From assembly GCF_025698545.1 (NCBI RefSeq), contig NC_068577.1, forward strand, positions 4,063,501 to 4,127,500: a DNA stretch of 64,000 bases, read 5' to 3'. The notes under the pieces were generated by a model. The model saw only the letters and a program-made list of their open reading frames with translations. It ran no database searches and was not told the origin of the DNA. Within the stretch, counting starts at the first letter, position 1. Every line of letters starts with the position of its first letter. Source of the stretch: Gossypium raimondii. Taxonomy: Eukaryota > Streptophyta > Magnoliopsida > Malvales > Malvaceae. Position numbers and translations under genes: made by a program. Below are positions 1,293-64,000 of this stretch, in pieces.

Positions 1293-2594
1293 GTGGCAAA
1301 TCAAGAAGAAGATCAACTTTTTGTTGCAACTTGTTTCACTAGTCACGAAGCAAGTGAAAGCTGGCCCATTGACAGTGGTTGCACTAATCATATGACACAT
1401 GACAAAGAGTTGTTCAAAGAATTGAAGATTGTCGAGTCCAAAAAGGTCAGAATTGGGAACGGTGACTACATTGTAGTCAAAGGAAAGGGCACTATAACCA
1501 TTACAAGTTGTTCAGGTACCAAGTTCATTACTGATGTTTTATATGTACATGATATTGATCAAAATTTGCTTAGTGTTGGTCAATTAATAGAGAAGGGCTT
1601 CAAAGTGAAGTTCATGGAAAATACATGTGTGATAGAGGATGCTATAGGACAGAAGATGTTCGAAATTAAGATGGTAGAAAGGAGTTTTTCCTTCAATCCA
1701 ATGCAGGAGGAACAATCAACTTTTCTAATCAAAGAAAGCCTCACAATGCTGTGGCATAAAAGGCTCGGACACTATCACCATCAAGGGATACTGCAGATGA
1801 AGTCCAAAAAATGACAATTGATCTTCTAGAACTTGATGATCAAATACCAATATGTAAGACTTGTCAATTTGGAAAGCAAAATAGAAAGCCATTTCCCAAG
1901 ACAACATGGAGAGCCACTTGTAAGTTGCAGTTGATTACACAGACATTTCTGGACTTCAAAGAACCCTTTCATTAGCAGGTAGTCGATATTATGCTGCTTT
2001 TATTGATGATTTTACAAGAATGTGTTGGATTTTCTTCTTAAAATTCAAGTCAGAAGTGGCTGGAGCATTCTGGAAATTCAAGAAGACTATGGAAAATCAA
2101 AGTGGCAACCAAATTCAAATATTGAGGTCCGATAATTGCAAGAAGTATACATCAAAAAATTTCAATGCATTTTGTGAAGAAGCTGGCATTGAGCATTAGT
2201 TAATAGCTCCTTATACTCCGCAACAAAATGGAGCTAGTGAAAGGCGAAACAAATATATCTTAGACATGGCCAATGTATGTTGCATGAGAAGAATTTACCC
2301 AAAAAGTTCTAGGCAGAAGCAACTCATACTGCGATTTTCCTACAGAATAAATTGCCCACAAAAGCAGTTAAGGATCAAACACCCTATGAGGCTTGGTATG
2401 GTCATAAACCATCTTTAAGTTTTCTCAAAATATTTGGTTTTTTGTGATTCACTTATGTTCCACAGATCAAGAGAGACAAGTTAGACAAAAAGGCACTTCT
2501 AGGAGTTTTTATCGGCTATAGCACTGTTGCAAAAGCTTATAAAATTTTCCAACCGCAATCTGAGAAAATTATTAGAAGCAGAGATGTTCATTTC
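1293..2594 (+). pseudogene. Copia-1 protease and integrase remnant
   Basis: The frame 1293-1814 keeps the retropepsin signature (WPIDSGCTNHMT, catalytic Asp intact near 1370) and the GAG-pre-integrase motif WHKRLGHYH. After a stop at 1814 the integrase core is recognisable in shifting frames: the DDFTRMCW segment near 2000, RSDN near 2130, and PYTPQQNGASERR near 2210-2240, with a TAG in place of the expected Trp just before. The His/Cys and DDE landmarks are mostly present but cannot be read as one protein. Confidence 0.8.
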
Positions 2595-4140
2595 GTGAAA
2601 AATGAAGAGTGGAACTGGGATGAGAAAAATGGCCAAAGCACAGCAGATCTGAAGCTTGAATTTTCTATTTCAACCACAGGTAAAGATGAAAATTGGCTAA
2701 ATGAGTTGGTGGATGATGCTCCAACAAAGGGTACTAGATTGCTCATTGACATTTATGCAAGATGTAATATAGTTGTTTGTGAACTTGCAGATTTTTCCAC
2801 GACAATGAAAGACATAAAATGGGTGGTTGCAATGAAGGAGGAGTTGTCCATGATTGAGAAAAACAAAACATGGGAGTTAGTTGATCGACCCGATGATAGG
2901 CAGGTGATTGGAGTCAAGTGGGTGTACAAAACCAAACTTAATGTTGATGGCTCAATCAACAAGCACAAACCAAGACTTGTGGTTAAAGGCTATGAACAAG
3001 TTTTTGGCATGGACTATTCAGACACTTTCACACTAGTTGCTCGTTTGGACACCATAAGACTTTTACTTGCTATAGCTGCTTAAATGAATTGGAAAGTGTA
3101 TCAGCTTGATGTAAAATCAGCTTTTTTAAATGGCATTTTGCAGGAAGAAATTTAAGTTGAGCAGCCTGAAGGTTTTGTGAAGAAAGGAGAGGAAGACAAG
3201 GTGTTTCTTCTTAAGAAGGCTATTTATGATGCATGGTTGCTTGAGCAATTCAAGCGGGAGATGGTGAAGGTTTTTGAGATGACAGATCTCAGATTGATGT
3301 CTTTTTTTCTTGGAATGGAAATTAAACAGGTTGAGCATGAAGTATTCATCTACCAGAAAAAGTATGCCAAGGAAATCTTGAAGAAATTCAAACTTGAAGA
3401 GTGCAAGGAAGTAAGCACTCCTATGAATCAAAATGAGAAGCTGTGTAAAGAAAATGGAGCTGATAAAGTTATGAGGGATATTTTAGAAGTTTGACCGGTT
3501 GCTTAATGTATCTTATAACAACACGTCCTGATATTTTAAATGCTATAAGTATTTTGTCATGATTTATGCATTTTGCTAGTGAATTGCATCTCAGGGCTGT
3601 CAAGAGAGTAGTTCGTTATATCAAAGGCACGAGTAATTTTGGTGTTAAATTCACAAGAAGCAAGGAGTTCAAGCTTGTTGGCTTCTCTGATAGTGATTGG
3701 GAAGGTTCCATTGATGACATGAGGAGTACATCAGGCTATTGTTTTGCTTTTGGATCTGGTGTCTTCTCATGGAGCTCGAAGAAGTAAGAAACTATGACTC
3801 AATCCACTACTGAAGCAGAATTTGTTGCTGCAGCAATCGTTGTTAATCAAGCTTTGTGGTTGAGAAAATTATTAAGTGATCTTAACCTTGAACATAATGA
3901 AAGCACAAAGATTTTTGTTGATAATCAAGCAGCCATTGCAATTTCTCATAATCCAATATTTCATGGGAAGACTAAGCATTTCAACATTAAGCTTTTCTTT
4001 TTTACGGAAGTGCAAAAAGAAGGTACCGTTATACTGGTTCATTGCAAAACAGAGGAGCAGATTGCAGATATCTTCACCAAGCTGCTCCCAGTAAGCAAAT
4101 TTGAAGTTTTGAGAACAACACTTGGTGTTTGCAGCAACTG
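2595..4140 (+). pseudogene. Copia-1 reverse transcriptase/RNase H remnant lacking YVDD
   Basis: The RT N-terminal half is readable at 2830-3227 (TWELVDRP, VKWVYKTK, RLVVKGYEQ, and LNGILQEE before a stop). At about 3230 the text jumps from the segment before ALYGLKQ directly to the post-catalytic WLLEQFKREM segment. The palm region with the YVDD active site, about 85 codons in relatives, is therefore deleted. RNase H follows in two frames at 3566-3787 and 3794-4141 (SDWEG, STTEAEF, DNQAAI, KTKHFNI), split by a TAA at 3785. The protein cannot polymerise DNA. Confidence 0.85.
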
Positions 4141-55635: not shown

Positions 55636-57167
55636 ATCCGTAGACATTTCATATTGTCGTTTGGTTCTTCAACTTCATGCATGTTTCGCTTTACTGTTAA
55701 ATTGGTAGAGCCCTCCTTTCATACTTTGTATAATATAACACCTGCATGATTCTTTTTTTTTGTCTTTCTCAATTGTTCCGATACTGGGACGGACTTGTGA
55801 GGTGAGTCTTGGATACGGTATATTCAAAACAGGTATGCTCAAATTTTTAACTTTTTCTTTTATATATTTTAAGGTACCCATATATAAATATTTGAATAGA
55901 TGAATGGGGTTCTTAAAATTTTAATTAATCCAAGTCACAGGTTTTGAGCCTTTGGTAATGTCATGTCTTGTCAATCGATGTTAGTGCAATTAGGAGTCCG
56001 AGATAGCTGACTCACATTGAGGTCTTCAAATTGGAGTTAGTCCATGGATTTTGAATCGAGTGGTTGAATTTTTTTTTTGAAAAGTGGATATGAAGTGGGG
56101 CGGAATTGATTTTTTTTTCTTTTTAAAACATGAGTATGGAGCAGTTATGGTAATTACTTGCTTCGCTCCGTCTTGCATTGCTCTGTTATATAATATTATC
56201 ATTTTATTCTTATATACATAACTATTAAAAAGGTAAAAATGTAATAATGTATTATAGAAACAATTATATTTTTTATGTTCAAATATTTTTCAGAAGAATT
56301 ATGTTGAAATATTTATTTAACTTTAAAATATTGAACCTATTGAAGATTAAAAGGTAACATCTATGGAGGTGGTAATAAATGATGAAGTGGGCCGGGTGGT
56401 GAAGTAAAGCGTATGATTGGATTTAGTAACATCTATCCCTCCTTGTTTCCATTGTCATCTTTAAATTTACTAATCTGAACATAATTATAAATAAAAAAGC
56501 ATTAAAATTGAAAATTTGTAATTATGGATTTTTTCTCTGTAACATTGATGCGTGAATAGGAAGTGTTTTTGTTATAAATTTCGACAAAAAATTTAATTTT
56601 GCAAACAAAATTAATGAGGTTGTCACGTGTCTTAAATGGTTAGATTTGATTAATTTAGTGATTGAATTAGTATTTTTGTAGTTAGAGACTTAAGGAGATG
56701 ATTTAATATAATGACAGAAATTCATAATTAAACCTTTAAAATGCTTTCTAGTTTTCGTCGTGTTTGTTTTGAAAATAATAATATTATATTGTTAGCAACG
56801 TGTCATATCAGTTATTAAATCTGTTAAAAAGAATTAAACAACGGAAAAGCCGTACAAAATTCCAAAATCGATCAAAACATTAAATAGTACAAATTTCAAA
56901 GGAAGATTGGATCAGGTTAAGTTCAATTGATTTTTAAATATTTTTTAAAAATTAATCAACATTTTTTAAAAATTTGTTGAATTTACTAATAATTTTTATT
57001 AATTTAATATATTCCTTTCTCGATCCTAGATTATACAGGTCATCGCTTCAGTGTTAGCGGAAATTCATCACACAATTTCAAGTTCAAACAACCCCAGAAA
57101 TTTCCAGTTTCATCACCTATCACTTCTAATCTAAATTCAACTGTTTTTGAGTGTTTTTCAAGGGAAA
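55636..57167. other. Intergenic spacer between the two UGT genes
   Basis: It holds the 3' UTR of copy 1, the second copy of the dispersed repeat (56060-56475), and a leader region from about 57005. That leader region resembles the region upstream of copy 1 (TTCCTTTCTCG, GATTCAGTGT/CTTCAGTGT, TCATCACA words). No TGACG pair is seen before copy 2. Confidence 0.6.
56060..56475 (+). repeat. Repeat shared with 51835-52265 (copy 2)
   Basis: It has the same order of words as copy 1 with many substitutions and small indels (GAAAAGTGGATATGAAGTGGGG, TTCGCTCCG, CATTTTATTCTTATATACATAACTATTAAAA). It sits 0.7-1.1 kb before UGT copy 2, whereas copy 1 lies 1.9-2.4 kb before its gene. Confidence 0.55.
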
Positions 57168-58616
57168 ATGAGAAGAGAAATTCATATGTTCTTCCTTCCA
57201 TTCTTGGCTCATGGTCACCTCATCCCAGTAGTGGATATGGCCAAGATGTTTGCGAGTCGAGGAGTGAAGACAACTATAGTTACCACTCCAGTCAACGCTC
57301 TTCTCTTCTCCAACACAATCGCGAGAAGCAAGGAATCTGGTATCCACATCGGTGTCGAGCTTCTCAACTTCCCCGCTGTCGACGTTGGGTTGCCTGAAGG
57401 GTGTGAAAACGATGACTTGATCCCTACTTCCCAAGACGGAAATTTGGAAATGATTACCAAATTCTTCCAGGCCTCACTCATGCTTCAACAACCCTTTGAA
57501 AAGCTGCTACAAGAACGTAAACCAGATTGTTTGGTGGCTGATATGTTCTTCCACTGGGCTACTGATGCTGCAAACAAATTCGGGATTCCCAGGTTGGTTT
57601 TTCATGGAATTAGCTACTTTTCATTGTGTGCATCGGAGTGCATGAGTCTATACAAGCCATACAAGAAGGTTCAGTCCGATTCCCAACCTTTTGTGGTGCC
57701 TAACCTACCAGGCGATATCAAGTTAACAAGAAACCAAGTGCCGGATTACGTCAAACAAGATGCTGAAACTAATTCTACCAAGCTGTTGAAAGAAATCAAG
57801 GAAGCAGAGCTGAAAAGCTACGGCGTAGTTGTCAACAGTTTTTACGAGCTGGAGGCAACCTATGCTGATTACTACAGGAATGTACTGGGGAAAAAGTCAT
57901 GGCATGTCGGCCCAGTTTCGCTCTGCAATAGGAAAAATATAGATAAAGTTGAGAGGGGAAACAAATCAGTCATTGATGAGCAGGAGTGTTTGGAGTGGCT
58001 TGAGTTAAAAGAACCCAATTCGGTTCTTTACATATGTTTTGGGAGTAGGACCAACTTTACATCTTCTCAATTAAAGGAGATCGCCATGGCCCTTGAAGCA
58101 TCGGAGTTGCAGTTCATTTGGGTTGTGAGGAAGCAAAAGAACAATGAAGAAGAGGATGATTGGTTGCCAGAAGGATTTGAGAAGAGAATGGAAGGGAAGG
58201 GACTTATAATAAGAGGATGGGCACCCCAAGTGTTGATTCTTGATCATGAAGCCGTTGGGGGATTTGTGACTCATTGTGGATGGAATTCAACCTTGGAAGG
58301 CGTGTGTGCTGGTGTGCCTATGGTTACTTGGCCAGCATTTGCTGAGCAGTTTTACAATGAAAAGTTGTTGACTCAAGTCTTAAATATTGCAGTAGCTGTG
58401 GGTGCTCAGAAATGGGTGAGAGTAGTGGGAGAGTTTGTGGAAAGGGAAGCCATTGAAAAGGCAGTGAAGGAGATGATGAAGGGTGACAAGGCAGAAGAAA
58501 TGAGAAACAGAGCCAAAGCACTGGCTGAAGCAGCAAAGAAAGCTGTTGAAAAAGGAGGGTCTTCTTACTCAGATTTGGATGCTCTGATTGAAGAAATAAG
58601 CTTGCGTTCTCATTAA
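57168..58616 (+). CDS. UGT73-type UDP-glucosyltransferase, copy 2
   Basis: An intronless 482-aa paralogue, very similar along its length to the gene 1.5 kb upstream and in the same orientation: a tandem duplication. The start is ATG at 57168 (MRREIHMFFLPF). Catalytic His17 and dyad Asp125 (LVADMFFHWATD) are present; the Pro usual after FF is His here. The PSPG box spans residues 351-394 and ends FAEQ, typical of UDP-glucose users. The acceptor region (about residues 80-105) carries a two-residue insertion and most of the differences from copy 1, so acceptor preference may differ. The TATA-like word upstream is weaker, and no as-1-like pair is visible. Acceptor substrate unknown. Confidence 0.95.
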   Translation: MRREIHMFFLPFLAHGHLIPVVDMAKMFASRGVKTTIVTTPVNALLFSNTIARSKESGIHIGVELLNFPAVDVGLPEGCENDDLIPTSQDGNLEMITKFFQASLMLQQPFEKLLQERKPDCLVADMFFHWATDAANKFGIPRLVFHGISYFSLCASECMSLYKPYKKVQSDSQPFVVPNLPGDIKLTRNQVPDYVKQDAETNSTKLLKEIKEAELKSYGVVVNSFYELEATYADYYRNVLGKKSWHVGPVSLCNRKNIDKVERGNKSVIDEQECLEWLELKEPNSVLYICFGSRTNFTSSQLKEIAMALEASELQFIWVVRKQKNNEEEDDWLPEGFEKRMEGKGLIIRGWAPQVLILDHEAVGGFVTHCGWNSTLEGVCAGVPMVTWPAFAEQFYNEKLLTQVLNIAVAVGAQKWVRVVGEFVEREAIEKAVKEMMKGDKAEEMRNRAKALAEAAKKAVEKGGSSYSDLDALIEEISLRSH

Positions 58617-58791: not shown

Positions 58792-59480
58792 CTTAAATAA
58801 TTTTTTTTTTAGTAATTTTAAACATAAAATCTTTTGGAACTGTAGCTTTTCGATTTTTCTTCGACTGAAAATTAAATATTGTTGCTGATTTTTGCCCTGG
58901 CCTCTTTCACTTATCAATAAATAAAGATTGTTGCCACTTAAAAACGGTAAACTACATCGATGGTCATCCAACTATACCCTTATTTCTGTTTTGGTTATTA
59001 AACTTTAAAAATTTTTAATTTAGCCACTAACGTTTGAATTTATTCCTGTTTTGTTCACTCATCAATAAATTGATAACGGAAAACCTTTTTTCTAATTGGT
59101 GTAATAACACATTTAGTCCTCAATAGTTACATATTCTATCAATTTGATCTTAATTTTAAATAATTTAATAAATTTAACCTTTCAAATTTACAAATTCTAT
59201 CAATTTGATACTAAAACTTACTAACTAAAGCTTTCAGCTTTTAAAACAAAGGTATTCCACATCTATTAATTGTTTTATTTACGGGTTGAAATTATCTAAT
59301 TCGGTATATAACCGGGTCTTTTACAAAAATATTATAAAAAATAAAAATTTACCAAAATACTACAAGTTTTTTTTTATTTACCAAAATATATAAACTTTTT
59401 TTATTTACCAAAATATATAAAAAAAACCAAAATTAAAAAAAAAACCTGACAAAAAAAATCAGACTGAAGTGACATCTCAC
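58792..59480. other. AT-rich intergenic DNA
   Basis: A 'ggtaaactacatcgatggtcatccaac'-type word series (about 58945-59060) resembles dispersed non-coding repeats of plant genomes. No gene is supported. The left end of the MULE downstream may lie in this stretch, but no terminal inverted repeat could be paired because the right end is outside the window. Confidence 0.4.
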
Positions 59481-59762
59481 TGGTCACGCCAATGGTATTG
59501 GCGGCACCAATGGTGCCAATGCCATTGGCGGCACCACTCGTATTATAAATACGACCTCTACCAAGCTGAAAAAAGAAAAATCAACAAAAAAAAAAGAGTT
59601 GGTGCTGAGAAGAAGAGAAAAAGAGAGAAAGAGAGCAGAAAAAGGAGGTATTTTTTTAAAAATAATTGATTATATTGTTGTTATTATTTTGTATATGTTG
59701 TAATATTTTTTGTTTTAGTTTAGTTATTAAGATTAATAGAACTCAAAATAAAAGTATTAGTT

Positions 59763-59807
<45 letters not shown>

Positions 59808-60183
59808 GTTGTTGTTGTTGTTGTTGTTGTTGTTAGTATGAAGATGTTATTAATGTATTAAGATGTGACTTAGTAATATTATTGTTAGCGTAAAACTAGT
59901 ATTATTATTATGGTTACTTATTATTTTTATTTACGAAAATAAACTAGTTAGTAAAAACTAGTATTATTATTATAGTTAGTTATTATTTTTAGTAAAATTA
60001 ATAATTTTAGTGTGTATTATTTTGAGTATAAAATTAATAATATTATTCGTAGTATAAAATTAATAATTTTAGTGTGTATTATTTTATTTATTATTTTGAG
60101 TATAAATTTTTTTTTAAGTAATTCAGTTACCGTTCGAGATATTTTATGAGATTTTGTTTTTTTTTACAGATTAAATATTGAAG
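59481..60183 (+). promoter_or_regulatory. 5' region of the MULE transposase gene
   Basis: A GC-richer palindromic block (59485-59540) precedes a TATA-like ATTATAAATACG at 59531-59542. A purine-rich leader and a likely 5' UTR intron follow: donor GAG|GTATTT at 59646/59647, acceptor TTTTTACAG at 60169. The ATG at 60184 lies 14 nt after the acceptor. Inside the intron, an (ATT)n microsatellite (59764-59807) turns directly into (GTT)n (59808-59834). Confidence 0.5.
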
Positions 60184-62850
60184 ATGGATGCTAAGTTTCT
60201 TGTATGCGTTTATTTCGATGGAGTCATATTGACAACAAGTGTTGGATGTGTATTTGAATGTCAGCAACAAATAGCAATGAGATTTAATAGAAATGTATCG
60301 TTCGATGAAATGAAGGCAATGATTAATGCAAAAATCCATAGACGTTGTGGGAGAAGGATATCAAAAATTTTCTACAAGTTTCCAATTTCGACAAATCCGG
60401 TCAAATTCGTCGAAATGGAACTTGTAGACGACGAAGACGTGGAGACAATGGTCGATCTCTACTGTGGGAATGGGACTGAGAAGAATGCACCGATTCACTT
60501 ATTTGCTGAGTTAGTCGGTATGGAGCAAAATGCATCTGATGAAGAAGACGGGGCTGAAGAACCGCGGATGGTGGCTCCAATATCATACGTTGATAGTGAA
60601 TCAACTATGGGTGGGATCGGTATCGACCTGAATATTACACCCGATGTTGACATGGTTGGTGGTGAAGAAGAAGGTGCCGGCGAAGAATGTGGTGGCGATC
60701 ATTGGGATGAAGAGGTCGATAGTGACGCTGATCCCGATGTAGACGATGTACCTGATGATATTGACGCTGAAGATGTCAACAACGATGAAGGCATTAATAC
60801 TTCTTCGGTCGGGGAGCAGATGCGGCGTATTCTGATCCACAATAATCCTGGGCCACACATGTCGCTCATAGACCCCGACGCAGCGTATATATCTGAGTTT
60901 TCGGAGTACCCTGAAATAGTTCATTCTCACGGGCTGGCCGTGACATCTTCTGATGATGAGTTATTCATAGGCCAGATATTCAGCTGTAAAGAAGAGTGCG
61001 TATATACCATTAAACGGTACAACATGAAGATATCGGTGGATTATAAAGTCTCTGTGTCTACTCCGACAATATATGTTGGGGAGTGTTGGAAGGCAGCGGA
61101 AGGCTGCAAATGGCGGGTACGAGCTGCATTCATTAGAAGTTCTCAGATGTGGGAGATATGAAAATTTGTTGGTCCTCATACATGCACATCAACACGTATG
61201 ACAGAAGATCATGGAAAACTTGATTCGAAAACCATTTGTACTTGTATCATGCCAATGGTGAAGGATATGCCGACCATTAGAGTTTCGGTACTCATTGCGG
61301 AAATGCAAGCACGATTCCAGTATCGAGTCTCGTATCGAAGGCATGGGTAGCTAAACAGATGGCGATGGAGCAATCAGATGGGGATTACGATTCGTCATAT
61401 AACGAACTTCAAGGTTGGATAGTCGCTATGCGGAGTACGTCATCGGGACCGTGATTGAGTTGCGCACAATTCCATCTTACGGGCGGATTAGCGATTCTGT
61501 ACCGGCAAAAGGATTTTCCATCGGATGTTCGGACGTTCGAACCATGTGCGGGCATTTCCCCACGCAAGCCACTTCGCAGTGGATGGGACTGGTCGTATGG
61601 AAAATATACACGATCTCGCTTCTTGCGATGGCTCAAGACGATAATGTAAACGTGTTCCCGATAGCATTTGCTATTGTAGATAAAGAGAACATGGAGTCTT
61701 GGGAATTCTTCCTCACAAATCTGCGGAGGTATGTTATTACGAACGATAACATTTGCATCATCTCCGATAGAGGGAAGGGTTTAATTGCAGCTATTAGGCG
61801 TTCCGGTGTGCCGTGGAGATCCATTTATTGCATTCGTCACATTACGTCAAACTTCCATAAAGATTATAAGAATGCAGACTGGAAGAGACAAGTCGTGGCA
61901 ATGGGTAAATGATAACCTTATCTTTTCAATATAAGCTGTAATGTTTGATGTTATCGACTTACTTTAACTTATTTTTCGTTAATACGTATGTAGCGTACGA
62001 GTTAGAGCCACATATTTTCTGGCAAAGAATGACCCGACTTGAGAGTGATATGGAGGGGCAGACAAATACATCTTTCCAACAATGGTTGCGCACAATGGAG
62101 CCGTGGCAGTGGGCTCAAAGTGCTGACGAGGGCTTTCGTTATGGCCACATGACCACAAACTTAGTCGAGGGGATCAACGCAGTCCTGTTGAAAACACGTC
62201 ATCTTCCGATAGCATCGGTATTTTCTGCTACTTTCTACAGGCTGGCCACTTTGATGCCAAGAATGGGTCGGCAGCAAGTCCACCAGATTCAGGCGGGACA
62301 TGTGTTTGTCGAATATGTGAGGAATACAATGGTCGTAAACCGTCGGTTGGCGAGGTCAATGAACGTGGAAATATATTCACGCTGACTGGAAACGTTTCGA
62401 GTTACCGATATCATCGGTCGTCGACCTAGGTCCTACGGAGTTGATCTCCGGAACAGACGGTGCGAGTGCAGGAAGTTCGAAACACTTCATTACCCCTGTG
62501 CGCATGTCGTGGCTGCGTGTGCTAAAGTCAATGTTGATGCGAAACAATATGTCGATGATGTGTACACGCTGAAGCGCACATTGCGTGTCTGGGAGAATGA
62601 GTTCCCCGTCCTGCCGGACCTATCTACGTGGGAGGTGCCGCAGATGACTTTCGAGCTTCTCCCAGACACAGGGCTACGGAGGAATCCAAGGGGTCGTCCG
62701 CAGTCAAGTAGAATCCGTAATGAGATGCATATTAGGGAGAAATCTGACGGAAAGCGCTGTGGAATATGTAGGCTAACTGGTCATAGCCGAAATAAATGCC
62801 CTAACCGAAACTTTCATGTTGGACAGTCGTCGGGATCGGGGCGAAATTGA
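60184..62850 (+). pseudogene. Mutator-like (MULE) transposase, mudrA type, disrupted
   Basis: The N-terminus (MDAKFLVCVYFDGV, residues 1-110) is the MuDR N-terminal domain. An acidic linker and the MuDR DNA-binding zinc-finger region follow, ending at a TGA (61159-61161) where CGA is likely. The catalytic core is split by at least four small indels at about 61338, 61432 and 61480-61620: VDGT (Asp codon 61582-61584), AQDDNVNVFPIAFAIVDKEN, and ISDRGKG (Asp 61766-61768). A probable intron spans about 61906-61993. The C-terminal part is open from 61994 to 62850 except one TGA at 62383-62385. It carries the SWIM finger CEC...YPCAH (62461-62505) and a CX2CX4HX4C knuckle (62758-62799). Once a cut-and-paste transposase, it cannot be translated whole now. 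Confidence 0.85.
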
Positions 62851-63151
62851 GCTAAAGCTATAAAATTTGTATGTATGTTGTTATAAAAGGTAATTTTATT
62901 AATAATAATTTTTCTTATTCGGCTTATGCTTACGCTTAAAGTGTATCCATATTGTTTCCAGAATAAGTTATAATGTACCATGTGAGCGTTATGGAATTAT
63001 TAAGATTATATCGAAAATAAAGGCATTCATAATTCGATTGAGCTTTAACATAATGAAAAAATTGAATCATTGATATATATACATAAAATTCAGAACATCC
63101 GAGATATCTAAAATACAATAATTCGAGTTATAGAAAAAGTGCATTAAACCC
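62851..63151. other. Spacer between convergent MULE transposase and PMD gene
   Basis: 301 bp of AT-rich DNA with no coding frame separates the two stop codons. It should hold both 3' UTRs. Confidence 0.5.
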
Positions 63152-64000
63152 CTACAGTTGATGGTTCGATGGTGTTGTTCGGGGGGTATACTTACGCGGA
63201 GGTCGACGCTGACGGCCTGGGCGACGACCAACGTCCTCATCGTCCGCAGGTGGGGGCGTGGAAAACATAGAGGGAATGTCCTATCGCTCGTTCGCCGTCG
63301 ACGAACTTGAACCAGCATGTGTCTCATAATGCGACGGATACGTGTCATGTTGGCCGGGCATGCCGTACTACGGCCGGGGGGATCCAAACAGTTCAAAATC
63401 GAACACATATTCGCCCTCTGCATAGCTCGGATAATATTCACCGCCAAACTGATCCGGACGATAGCCAAGTGATTCCTCACTTGAACCTAACTGTTCGGGC
63501 TCTGCCGGTTGCGAAGGACAATATGCCGTCGGATCCGGATCCATCGAGCTGTCTGCTTCCGATCCCCCAACTTGCTGAACGTACGCGCTCCAAGTAAATA
63601 CGGCTTCCCGCGACTATGGTACCATTCTATATACTGTGCGGATGGTTGCAGGTCTGTAGCCATAACTATCTGAGGAATTCGGCGCAATCGATCGTACCAC
63701 AGTGCGACGTATTTCCAGTGATATATTCCCCAGTCCAATTGAACTCTTCCTCTCTTTGTCAAGCCGTGATCATCCCCCAACTGGCACGGCGGATCCGGGA
63801 TATGTTGGATGCAGCCAAACTGTCGAAGCACCCGATCGCCGTTATACCACTCGACGATGTTGAAATTTATTATTGGTGTGTTTGTGCACCATGTGTGGGA
63901 ATCAACGAGTGCGGACGGGGGTACAACATTTGTAATTTCTGGCCTCCGGTACGGCATCCATATAAACTGCATGAGTAATAACATTGTAACGAGTTAGACG
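63152..64000 (-). pseudogene. Plant mobile domain (PMD/MAIN-like) gene, 3' part, degenerate
   Basis: The minus-strand frame from the window edge to about 63487 reads as the C-terminal part of the plant mobile domain: EWYNGDRVLRQFGCIQ, then a DWGIYHWKYVALWYDRL block and IEWYHSRGKPYLL. In relatives this is MHESDRVLRQFG..., W..Y...W..R and MPWF..HGKPYLL. A 1-bp shift near 63510 moves the frame. The new frame carries an acidic, Tyr/Pro-rich tail with a TAG near 63375 and another near 63287, and ends RYTPG-like (KYTPRTTPSNHQL) at 63152-63154. PMD proteins include host genes MAIN and MAIL1 and many transposon-borne copies. The gene continues beyond the window. Confidence 0.7.

What the first reader, a model, noticed from the sequence alone, without database searches (positions are those of the whole stretch)
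60184..64000. MULE transposase facing a plant-mobile-domain gene: possible two-gene transposon
The two genes converge with only about 300 bp between stops, the layout of mudrA and mudrB in maize MuDR. PMD proteins are known both as host silencing/genome-stability factors (MAIN, MAIL1) and as passengers of transposons. If the pair is bounded by one set of terminal repeats, this is a MULE whose second gene is a PMD, perhaps an anti-silencing or helper factor. Both genes are similarly decayed (a few indels and nonsense codons), which fits a shared fate.
Basis: partly seen in the sequence, partly recalled or inferred. Interest (0 to 1): 0.7.

Follow-up and report, generated by a model that had tools for sequence, protein, structure and literature searches.

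The report
Two-gene plant transposon carrying silencing-type gene
A plant genome (probably a wild cotton) carries many copies of a jumping gene with two genes that face each other inside one pair of end repeats: the enzyme that moves it, and a relative of a protein plants use to silence jumping genes, which the transposon seems to have kept working.

Summary
The window is C13:4063501-4127500 of a 750.8 Mb plant genome (Gossypium D-type by inference). Extending 9 kb past 64000 gave the missing end. A 7,527 bp element (window-extended 59314-66840) has ~225 bp terminal inverted repeats (95%) and a 9 bp target-site duplication, TATATAACC, enclosing BOTH the MULE transposase and the converging plant-mobile-domain (PMD) gene. 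A genome search with the gene pair scored 40 loci, window included: 28 match transposase, spacer and PMD end in one stretch; 37 of 40 have both genes (recounted). Seven copies were read. Six are one family. The seventh (L035) is a second family whose TIRs share only their ~50 bp tip, with its own exact 9 bp TSD and the same layout. Between families the main PMD exon has dN/dS 0.18 at dS ~1.5, the transposase 0.09-0.25: the PMD was kept under selection. This is a TIR-MULE with a standalone convergent PMD gene, unlike published MULE-PMD fusions (grasses, Amborella) and Gypsy PMDs. An anti-silencing or helper role is untested. The window copy is dead.

The parts
59305..59313 (.). left copy of the 9 bp target-site duplication TATATAACC (right copy at window-extended 66842-66850, one base outside the CCC end)
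59314..59536 (+). left terminal inverted repeat (starts GGGTCTTTTACAAAAATATT); partner at 66616-66840 in the extension, 95% over 228 columns
59544..59551 (+). TATAAATA box just inside the left TIR, probable transposase promoter
   Evidence: sequence; inferred
59649..60169 (+). probable intron in the transposase 5' UTR (GT...AG)
   Evidence: sequence; inferred
60184..62850 (+). MULE (MURA-type) transposase gene, decayed: DBD_Tnp_Mut, MULE catalytic, SWIM; short intron about 61905-61993 inferred; in-frame TGA at 61159 and frame breaks within about 61320-61600
63152..64000 (-). 3' part (last exon) of the plant mobile domain gene, decayed; the gene starts at ATG 65106 in the extension (four exons inferred from GT/AG borders)
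59314..64000 (.). in-window part of the 7,527 bp MULE-PMD element (whole element 59314-66840; the rest is in L030 1-2840)

Best explanation
This is a dead copy of an autonomous-type, TIR-bounded Mutator-like transposon with two converging genes. One is a MURA-type transposase, expressed from the left TIR. The other is a standalone plant mobile domain protein, expressed from the right TIR side. Shown: one TIR/TSD unit holds both genes, the unit is multicopy, the layout is shared by two TIR families, and both proteins evolved under purifying selection. Inferred: the promoters, and that the PMD is a working second gene of the transposon. The most likely mechanism (about 0.55) is that it mimics or competes with the host MAIN/MAIL1-PP7L PMD complex and so relieves silencing of the element (anti-silencing, as VANC does in VANDAL elements). 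Less likely, it aids integration as MURB is thought to. The confidence given is for the two-gene transposon, not for that role.
For: Left and right TIR 95% over 228 columns, with a 9/9 TSD. The seven copies read (window, L031-L036) carry both genes convergently between TIRs; 5 of 7 have an 8/9 or 9/9 TSD, chance P 0.0018 or 0.0002 each. 28 of 40 scored loci, window included, match the pair in one stretch and 37 of 40 have at least 200 bp of both genes (table, recounted). 12 of 12 listed adjacent PMD/MULE pairs are convergent, and the 4 listed PMD loci next to copies lie on the opposite strand. The second family, L035, has an element of 7,128 bp, TIRs of 945 and 921 bp at 96%, and TSD GTACCTATG 9/9. 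A-B dN/dS: PMD main exon 0.18 in both pairs (239 codons, dS 1.44-1.50); transposase 0.19, 0.25, 0.09, 0.09 (64-139 codons). PMDs of A and B group together (93/96, just under the tool's mark of 95/80) apart from the other PMDs tested. Host PMDs MAIN and MAIL1 silence TEs, and Ikeda et al. speculate that MULE-captured PMDs serve anti-silencing (PMC5418596, passages). VANC is a MULE-encoded anti-silencing protein (PMC8616336 and PMC13317346, passages).
Against: No expression, methylation or protein data exist here, so the function of the PMD is inference. 2 of 7 copies (L033, L034) show no TSD (2/9, 5/9). 3 of 40 loci have little or no PMD. Within family A the last PMD exon has dN/dS 0.53-1.25, no lower on average than its shifted-frame controls (means 0.82 and 0.66), and single pairs overlap the control ranges in the other exons too; the W-L031 pair gives about 1 for PMD exon 2 (0.98) and for the last transposase exon (1.02). 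dS above 1 is near saturation. No copy read here is shown to be fully open in both genes. A blind sample of 21 stretches (202 kb) held no pair.
Confidence: 0.9

Rival explanations
1. The PMD is a passive passenger: a host PMD fragment captured Pack-MULE style and carried along without function.
For: MULEs often capture host gene pieces (PMC13317346, passages). The last PMD exon shows no clear constraint within family A.
Against: The main PMD exon has dN/dS 0.18 between two families at dS about 1.5; the gene spans the PMD profile in several exons and is retained in 37 of 40 loci.
Confidence: 0.06
2. Two adjacent but separate elements: a MULE beside a PMD-carrying Gypsy element or a host PMD gene.
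For: PMDs are common in Ty3/Gypsy elements (PMC5418596, PMC9289625; passages).
Against: One TIR pair and TSD enclose both; the same unit occurs at many loci; no reverse transcriptase domain among the pieces scanned.
Confidence: 0.01
3. The PMD is the MURB-like second function: a helper of insertion, transposase stability or TIR binding rather than an anti-silencing factor.
For: Same convergent layout as mudrA/mudrB in MuDR (recalled); conserved with the transposase.
Against: Nothing that I saw links PMDs to DNA cutting or joining; the roles of PMD proteins named in the papers are in transcription and TE silencing (PMC5418596, PMC7156037; passages).
Confidence: 0.3
4. The outer 326 bp inverted repeats (58946-59271 and 67477-67801) are the true ends and the inner TIRs are sub-terminal.
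For: An 82% inverted match flanks the element.
Against: Unequal gaps on the two sides (42 and 636 bp), lower identity, no TSD seen, and no other fetched locus matches the outer repeat. Both genes would be enclosed in any case.
Confidence: 0.02

Closest known systems
MuDR of maize (recalled; no MuDR sequence was fetched)
   Same: TIR MULE, 9 bp TSD, two converging genes, MURA-type transposase
   Different: Second gene matches PMD; no direct MURB comparison was made.
PMD-carrying MULEs of grasses and Amborella (Ikeda et al. 2017, PMC5418596, passages; first seen in a rice MULE by Babu et al. 2006, not held)
   Same: A MULE that carries a PMD
   Different: There the PMD is reported as a fusion with the transposase, in grasses and Amborella; here it is a separate, converging multi-exon gene in what is probably a eudicot
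VANDAL/VANC and KIU (Ulp1) MULEs of Arabidopsis (PMC8616336, PMC13317346; passages)
   Same: MULE with an extra conserved gene; VANC is an anti-silencing protein
   Different: VANDALs are non-TIR MULEs and the extra gene is not described as a PMD
PMD-A Ty3/Gypsy elements (PMC5418596, PMC9289625; passages)
   Same: TE-borne PMD
   Different: LTR retrotransposons, not DNA transposons
MAIN / MAIL1 / MAIL2 genic PMD-C proteins (PMC7156037; passages)
   Same: PMD domain family; TE silencing factors in Arabidopsis with PP7L
   Different: Host genes; the MAIN-like genic candidate fetched here (L026, name by recall) is 36-40% identical to the MULE PMDs

Membership tests
Mutator-like element (MULE), TIR type | MULE/MURA transposase domains | tested here: met
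   PF10551, PF03108, PF04434, PF00872
Mutator-like element (MULE), TIR type | long TIRs at both ends | tested here: met
   223/225 bp, 95%; in 7 of 7 copies read
Mutator-like element (MULE), TIR type | 9-11 bp target-site duplication | tested here: met
   9 bp, 5 of 7 copies at 8/9 or 9/9; 2 of 7 not
MuDR (two-gene maize type) | second gene converging on the transposase | tested here: met
MuDR (two-gene maize type) | second gene is a mudrB homologue | tested here: not met
   Pfam gives PMD, with only sub-threshold DUF1985 besides; no direct MURB comparison was made, so this is indirect
Ikeda-type MULE-PMD | PMD fused to the transposase | tested here: not met
   genes are on opposite strands with own stops
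PMD-C clade (MAIN/MAIL) | PMD groups within PMD-C | tested here: inconclusive
   no named reference PMDs were available; MULE PMDs group with repeat PMDs L027/L028 and L026 apart from L022-L024
VANDAL (non-TIR MULE) | no TIRs | tested here: not met
   TIRs present
Gypsy PMD-A element | LTRs and reverse transcriptase | tested here: not met
   TIRs plus MULE transposase; no RT in the pieces scanned; LTRs were not sought as such
Anti-silencing factor (VANC-like function) | expression of the protein releases silencing of its own element | not testable with these tools
   needs expression and methylation data

The most novel reading that the evidence does not exclude
The PMD gene is a dedicated, selected anti-silencing gene of a eudicot TIR-MULE lineage. 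It is a transposon-encoded antagonist of the host MAIN/MAIL1-PP7L silencing pathway, acquired once before the two TIR families split and kept as a separate converging gene. That would make it a third strategy, beside MURB and VANC, for the second gene of Mu-like elements.
Probability: 0.4. Interest if true: 0.8.

Novelty: new variant of a known kind. Interest (0 to 1): 0.6.

Why it matters
Ikeda et al. proposed that MULEs use captured PMDs against host silencing, but the elements they described carry PMD fusions in grasses and Amborella. Nicolau et al. state that eudicots contain mainly genic PMD-C (PMC7156037, passages). A eudicot TIR-MULE family with a standalone, selected, convergent PMD gene would make the counter-silencing idea directly testable in a tractable layout. 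It also suggests that many PMD 'genes' in such genomes may be transposon genes (6,033 loose first-look PMD candidates here, of which 117 were scored).

Tried and rejected
Viral contigs: no relatives of the PMD or the transposase. Solved structures: nothing significant for either. TIR partner inside 62848-64000: none convincing. Two adjacent elements, Gypsy origin and the outer inverted repeat as true ends were rejected as set out above. My first wording that the TIRs of families A and B are unrelated was wrong: a check found 78% identity over their first 49 bases, and short A+T-rich matches besides. A count of how many PMDs genome-wide sit beside a MULE was not possible: each list is cut (117 PMD loci scored of 6,033 candidates; 150 of 2,055 MULE candidates), so 12 of 117 and 12 of 150 are lower bounds and say nothing about the share. 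A copy count for family B, a PMD-only search (92, 98, 108) and a TIR search (61, not repeated) did not complete. Structure prediction was not tried, because by its description that tool does not take the stretches fetched by place that hold the other half of the PMD. L027-L029 were considered as a possible Gypsy type and left open: L028 has a MULE N-terminus-like ORF facing its PMD, which hints at another MULE-linked lineage.

Full report
WHERE IT IS. The genome search placed the window at C13:4063501-4127500 of a 750,779,957 bp assembly in 281 contigs. Contigs C1-C13 are chromosome-sized (C1-C10 at 48.3-63.0 Mb; C11-C13 at 57.7-63.2 Mb).

THE OBSERVATION. On the + strand, 60184-62850 codes for a MULE transposase in pieces (Pfam DBD_Tnp_Mut E 3.5e-6, MULE 1.7e-12, SWIM 8.7e-7). 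On the - strand, the piece 63490-63993 matches PMD (1.9e-15). The rest of the PMD lies in the extension L030 (E 1.6e-26 and 1e-10); its ATG is at window-extended 65106 and four exons with GT/AG borders can be read. 301 bases separate the stops. Both genes carry stops and frame breaks.

THE BOUNDARIES. No convincing inverted partner of the left end lies between the genes or in the rest of the window: the tip scored 12 (80 of 200 shuffles as high); an A+T-rich stretch inside it scored 21 (3 of 200 shuffles over 62848-64000, 65 of 200 over the spacer). Past the PMD, at 66616-66840, lies a 95% inverted copy of 59314-59536. The flanks are TATATAACC|GGG... and ...CCC|A|TATATAACC: a 9 bp TSD with one extra base, or 10 bp with one mismatch. 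The element is 7,527 bp and encloses both genes. It sits inside an older inverted-repeat structure (58946-59271 and 67477-67801, 82%) with no TSD seen; no other fetched locus matches that outer repeat.

OTHER COPIES. A search with 60184-64000 scored 40 loci out of 1,224 first-look candidates. Recounted from its 45 rows, window included: 28 of 40 match from the transposase start to at least query base 3746 in one stretch; 37 of 40 have at least 200 bp of the transposase and of the PMD exon (query 2972-3810); the three without are C2:3876442, C11:26948527 and C2:43506343. Five further copies of this family (A) were fetched: L031-L034 and L036. L031-L034 are 7.46-7.59 kb, and pairwise identity among the window copy and these four is 92-97%; L036 is 88% to the window copy. 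All have TIRs at both ends. One locus of a diverged pair, L035, is a second family (B): transposase DNA 76% to A, PMD main exon 65% at protein level, TIRs of 945 and 921 bp at 96%, element 7,128 bp, TSD GTACCTATG exact. The TIR of A matches that of B over its first 49 bases (78%), with only short A+T-rich matches elsewhere. Scored by one rule, TSDs are 9/9 in the window copy, L032, L036 and L035, 8/9 in L031, and absent in L033 (2/9) and L034 (5/9); chance P for 9/9 is 0.0002 and for 8/9 0.0018. Intersecting the listed PMD loci (117) and MULE domains (150) gave 12 neighbours within 6 kb, 12 of 12 convergent, against 0.24 expected. One of the 12 (C9:3531756) is also among the 40 loci; two of the 12 were fetched (L035, L036). 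The blind sample of 21 stretches (202 kb) held none.

SELECTION. Within family A (10 pairs of five copies) dN/dS is 0.38-0.58 for transposase exon 1, 0.34-1.02 for its last exon, 0.26-0.98 for the PMD main exon and 0.53-1.25 for the PMD last exon (means, by hand, 0.44, 0.50, 0.48 and 0.79). Shifted-frame controls average 0.70 and 0.83; 0.81 and 1.27; 1.20 and 0.91; 0.82 and 0.66. So three of the four exons lie below their controls on average, with overlapping ranges, and the last PMD exon does not. These copies are decayed, which pulls ratios up. Between families A and B the PMD main exon gives 0.18 in both pairs (dS 1.44 and 1.50) and the transposase 0.19, 0.25, 0.09 and 0.09 (64-139 codons, dS 0.62-0.99). 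The PMD last-exon core is 44-46% identical with saturated dS. The main PMD exon was thus maintained with the transposase over a long time.

ORIGIN OF THE PMD. In a tree of 11 PMD main-exon sequences the MULE PMDs of A and B form one group (93/96, just under the tool's mark). With them lie the repeat PMDs L027/L028 (46-49% identical) and the intact gene L026 (36-40%), apart from the long intact genes L022-L024 (19-25%). The tool warned of long branches and no named reference was available, so neither host capture nor Gypsy descent is decided. L028 carries, facing its PMD, an ORF related to the N-terminus of this transposase (25% over 100 aa, E 6e-13; no Pfam match), which hints that this PMD lineage too was MULE-borne.

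HOW IT WORKS. Shown: a TIR/TSD transposon unit, two converging genes, multicopy, selection on both. Inferred: the transposase is driven from the left TIR (TATAAATA at 59544-59551 followed by a 5' UTR intron) and the PMD from the right side; the transposase moves the element. The PMD most likely acts against host silencing by entering or competing with the MAIN/MAIL1-PP7L pathway. That pathway silences TEs in Arabidopsis largely independently of DNA methylation (PMC5418596, passages; PMC7156037, passages). VANC shows that a Mu-like element can encode such a factor (PMC8616336, PMC13317346, passages). I put anti-silencing at about 0.55, a MURB-like helper at 0.3, passenger at 0.06.

WHAT IS KNOWN. 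Ikeda et al. 2017 report MULE PMDs as fusion proteins in several grasses and Amborella and speculate on anti-silencing (passages). Babu et al. 2006, cited there for the first PMD in a rice MULE, is not held. Gypsy PMDs are well known (PMC9289625, passages). Nicolau et al. state that eudicots contain mainly genic PMD-C (passages). Searches for 'plant mobile domain' with MULE and transposon, with Mutator or terminal inverted repeats (25 of 274 listed), with transposase and Gossypium, 'mobile domain' with MULE, Ulp1 and others (20 of 564 listed), 'mobile domain' with MuDR, PF10536 with transposase, the long-form phosphatase name and PMD with MAIL1 showed no description of a convergent standalone PMD in a MULE among the titles and abstract beginnings listed. 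I saw passages only of PMC5418596, PMC8616336, PMC4583175, PMC9289625, PMC5240378, PMC13317346, PMC11152179 and PMC7156037. Repbase and most subscription papers could not be searched, so a consensus of this family may already be deposited.

VERDICT. It is a new variant of a known kind (MULE with a PMD), not a new class.

Noticed in passing
window 58946-59271 and L030 3477-3801 (window-extended 67477-67801): 82% inverted repeats flank the element: it appears nested in an older TIR element of about 1.3 kb, for which no TSD was seen.
   Followed up: partly
L030 about 1128-2012 (window-extended about 65128-66012): The leader upstream of the PMD holds several degenerate direct repeats (about 75-280 bp, 69-81% identical); against family B's leader only one 24-base match (E 0.009) was found. 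Could be a cis target region, as VANC has; untested.
   Followed up: partly
L030 1664-1730: A short internal copy of the TIR tip (78%), oriented like the right TIR; possibly remains of an older end.
   Followed up: no
L028 3695-4135 (-): An ORF related to this transposase's N-terminus (E 6e-13) faces a PMD of a third, repetitive lineage (L027-L029); suggests a further MULE-PMD lineage.
   Followed up: partly
window 59488-59541; L030 2589-2664: The inner end of the TIRs is built of 27 bp units with near-palindromes such as GGCACCAATGGTGCC.
   Followed up: no
window 57135-58616 and L030 6578-8050: The element lies between two glycosyltransferase-like genes in the same orientation; the first matches UDPGT, the second is a 490 aa ORF of similar start, named by eye.
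   Followed up: no
L015 about 2490-3450: A lone decayed PMD fragment, 30-31% identical to the last PMD exon and 50% over 42 aa of the main exon, found in a blind sample.
   Followed up: no
L025 3069-3660 (- in turned orientation): Ty1-copia reverse-transcriptase-like ORFs (named by eye) beside a decayed PMD gene.
   Followed up: no
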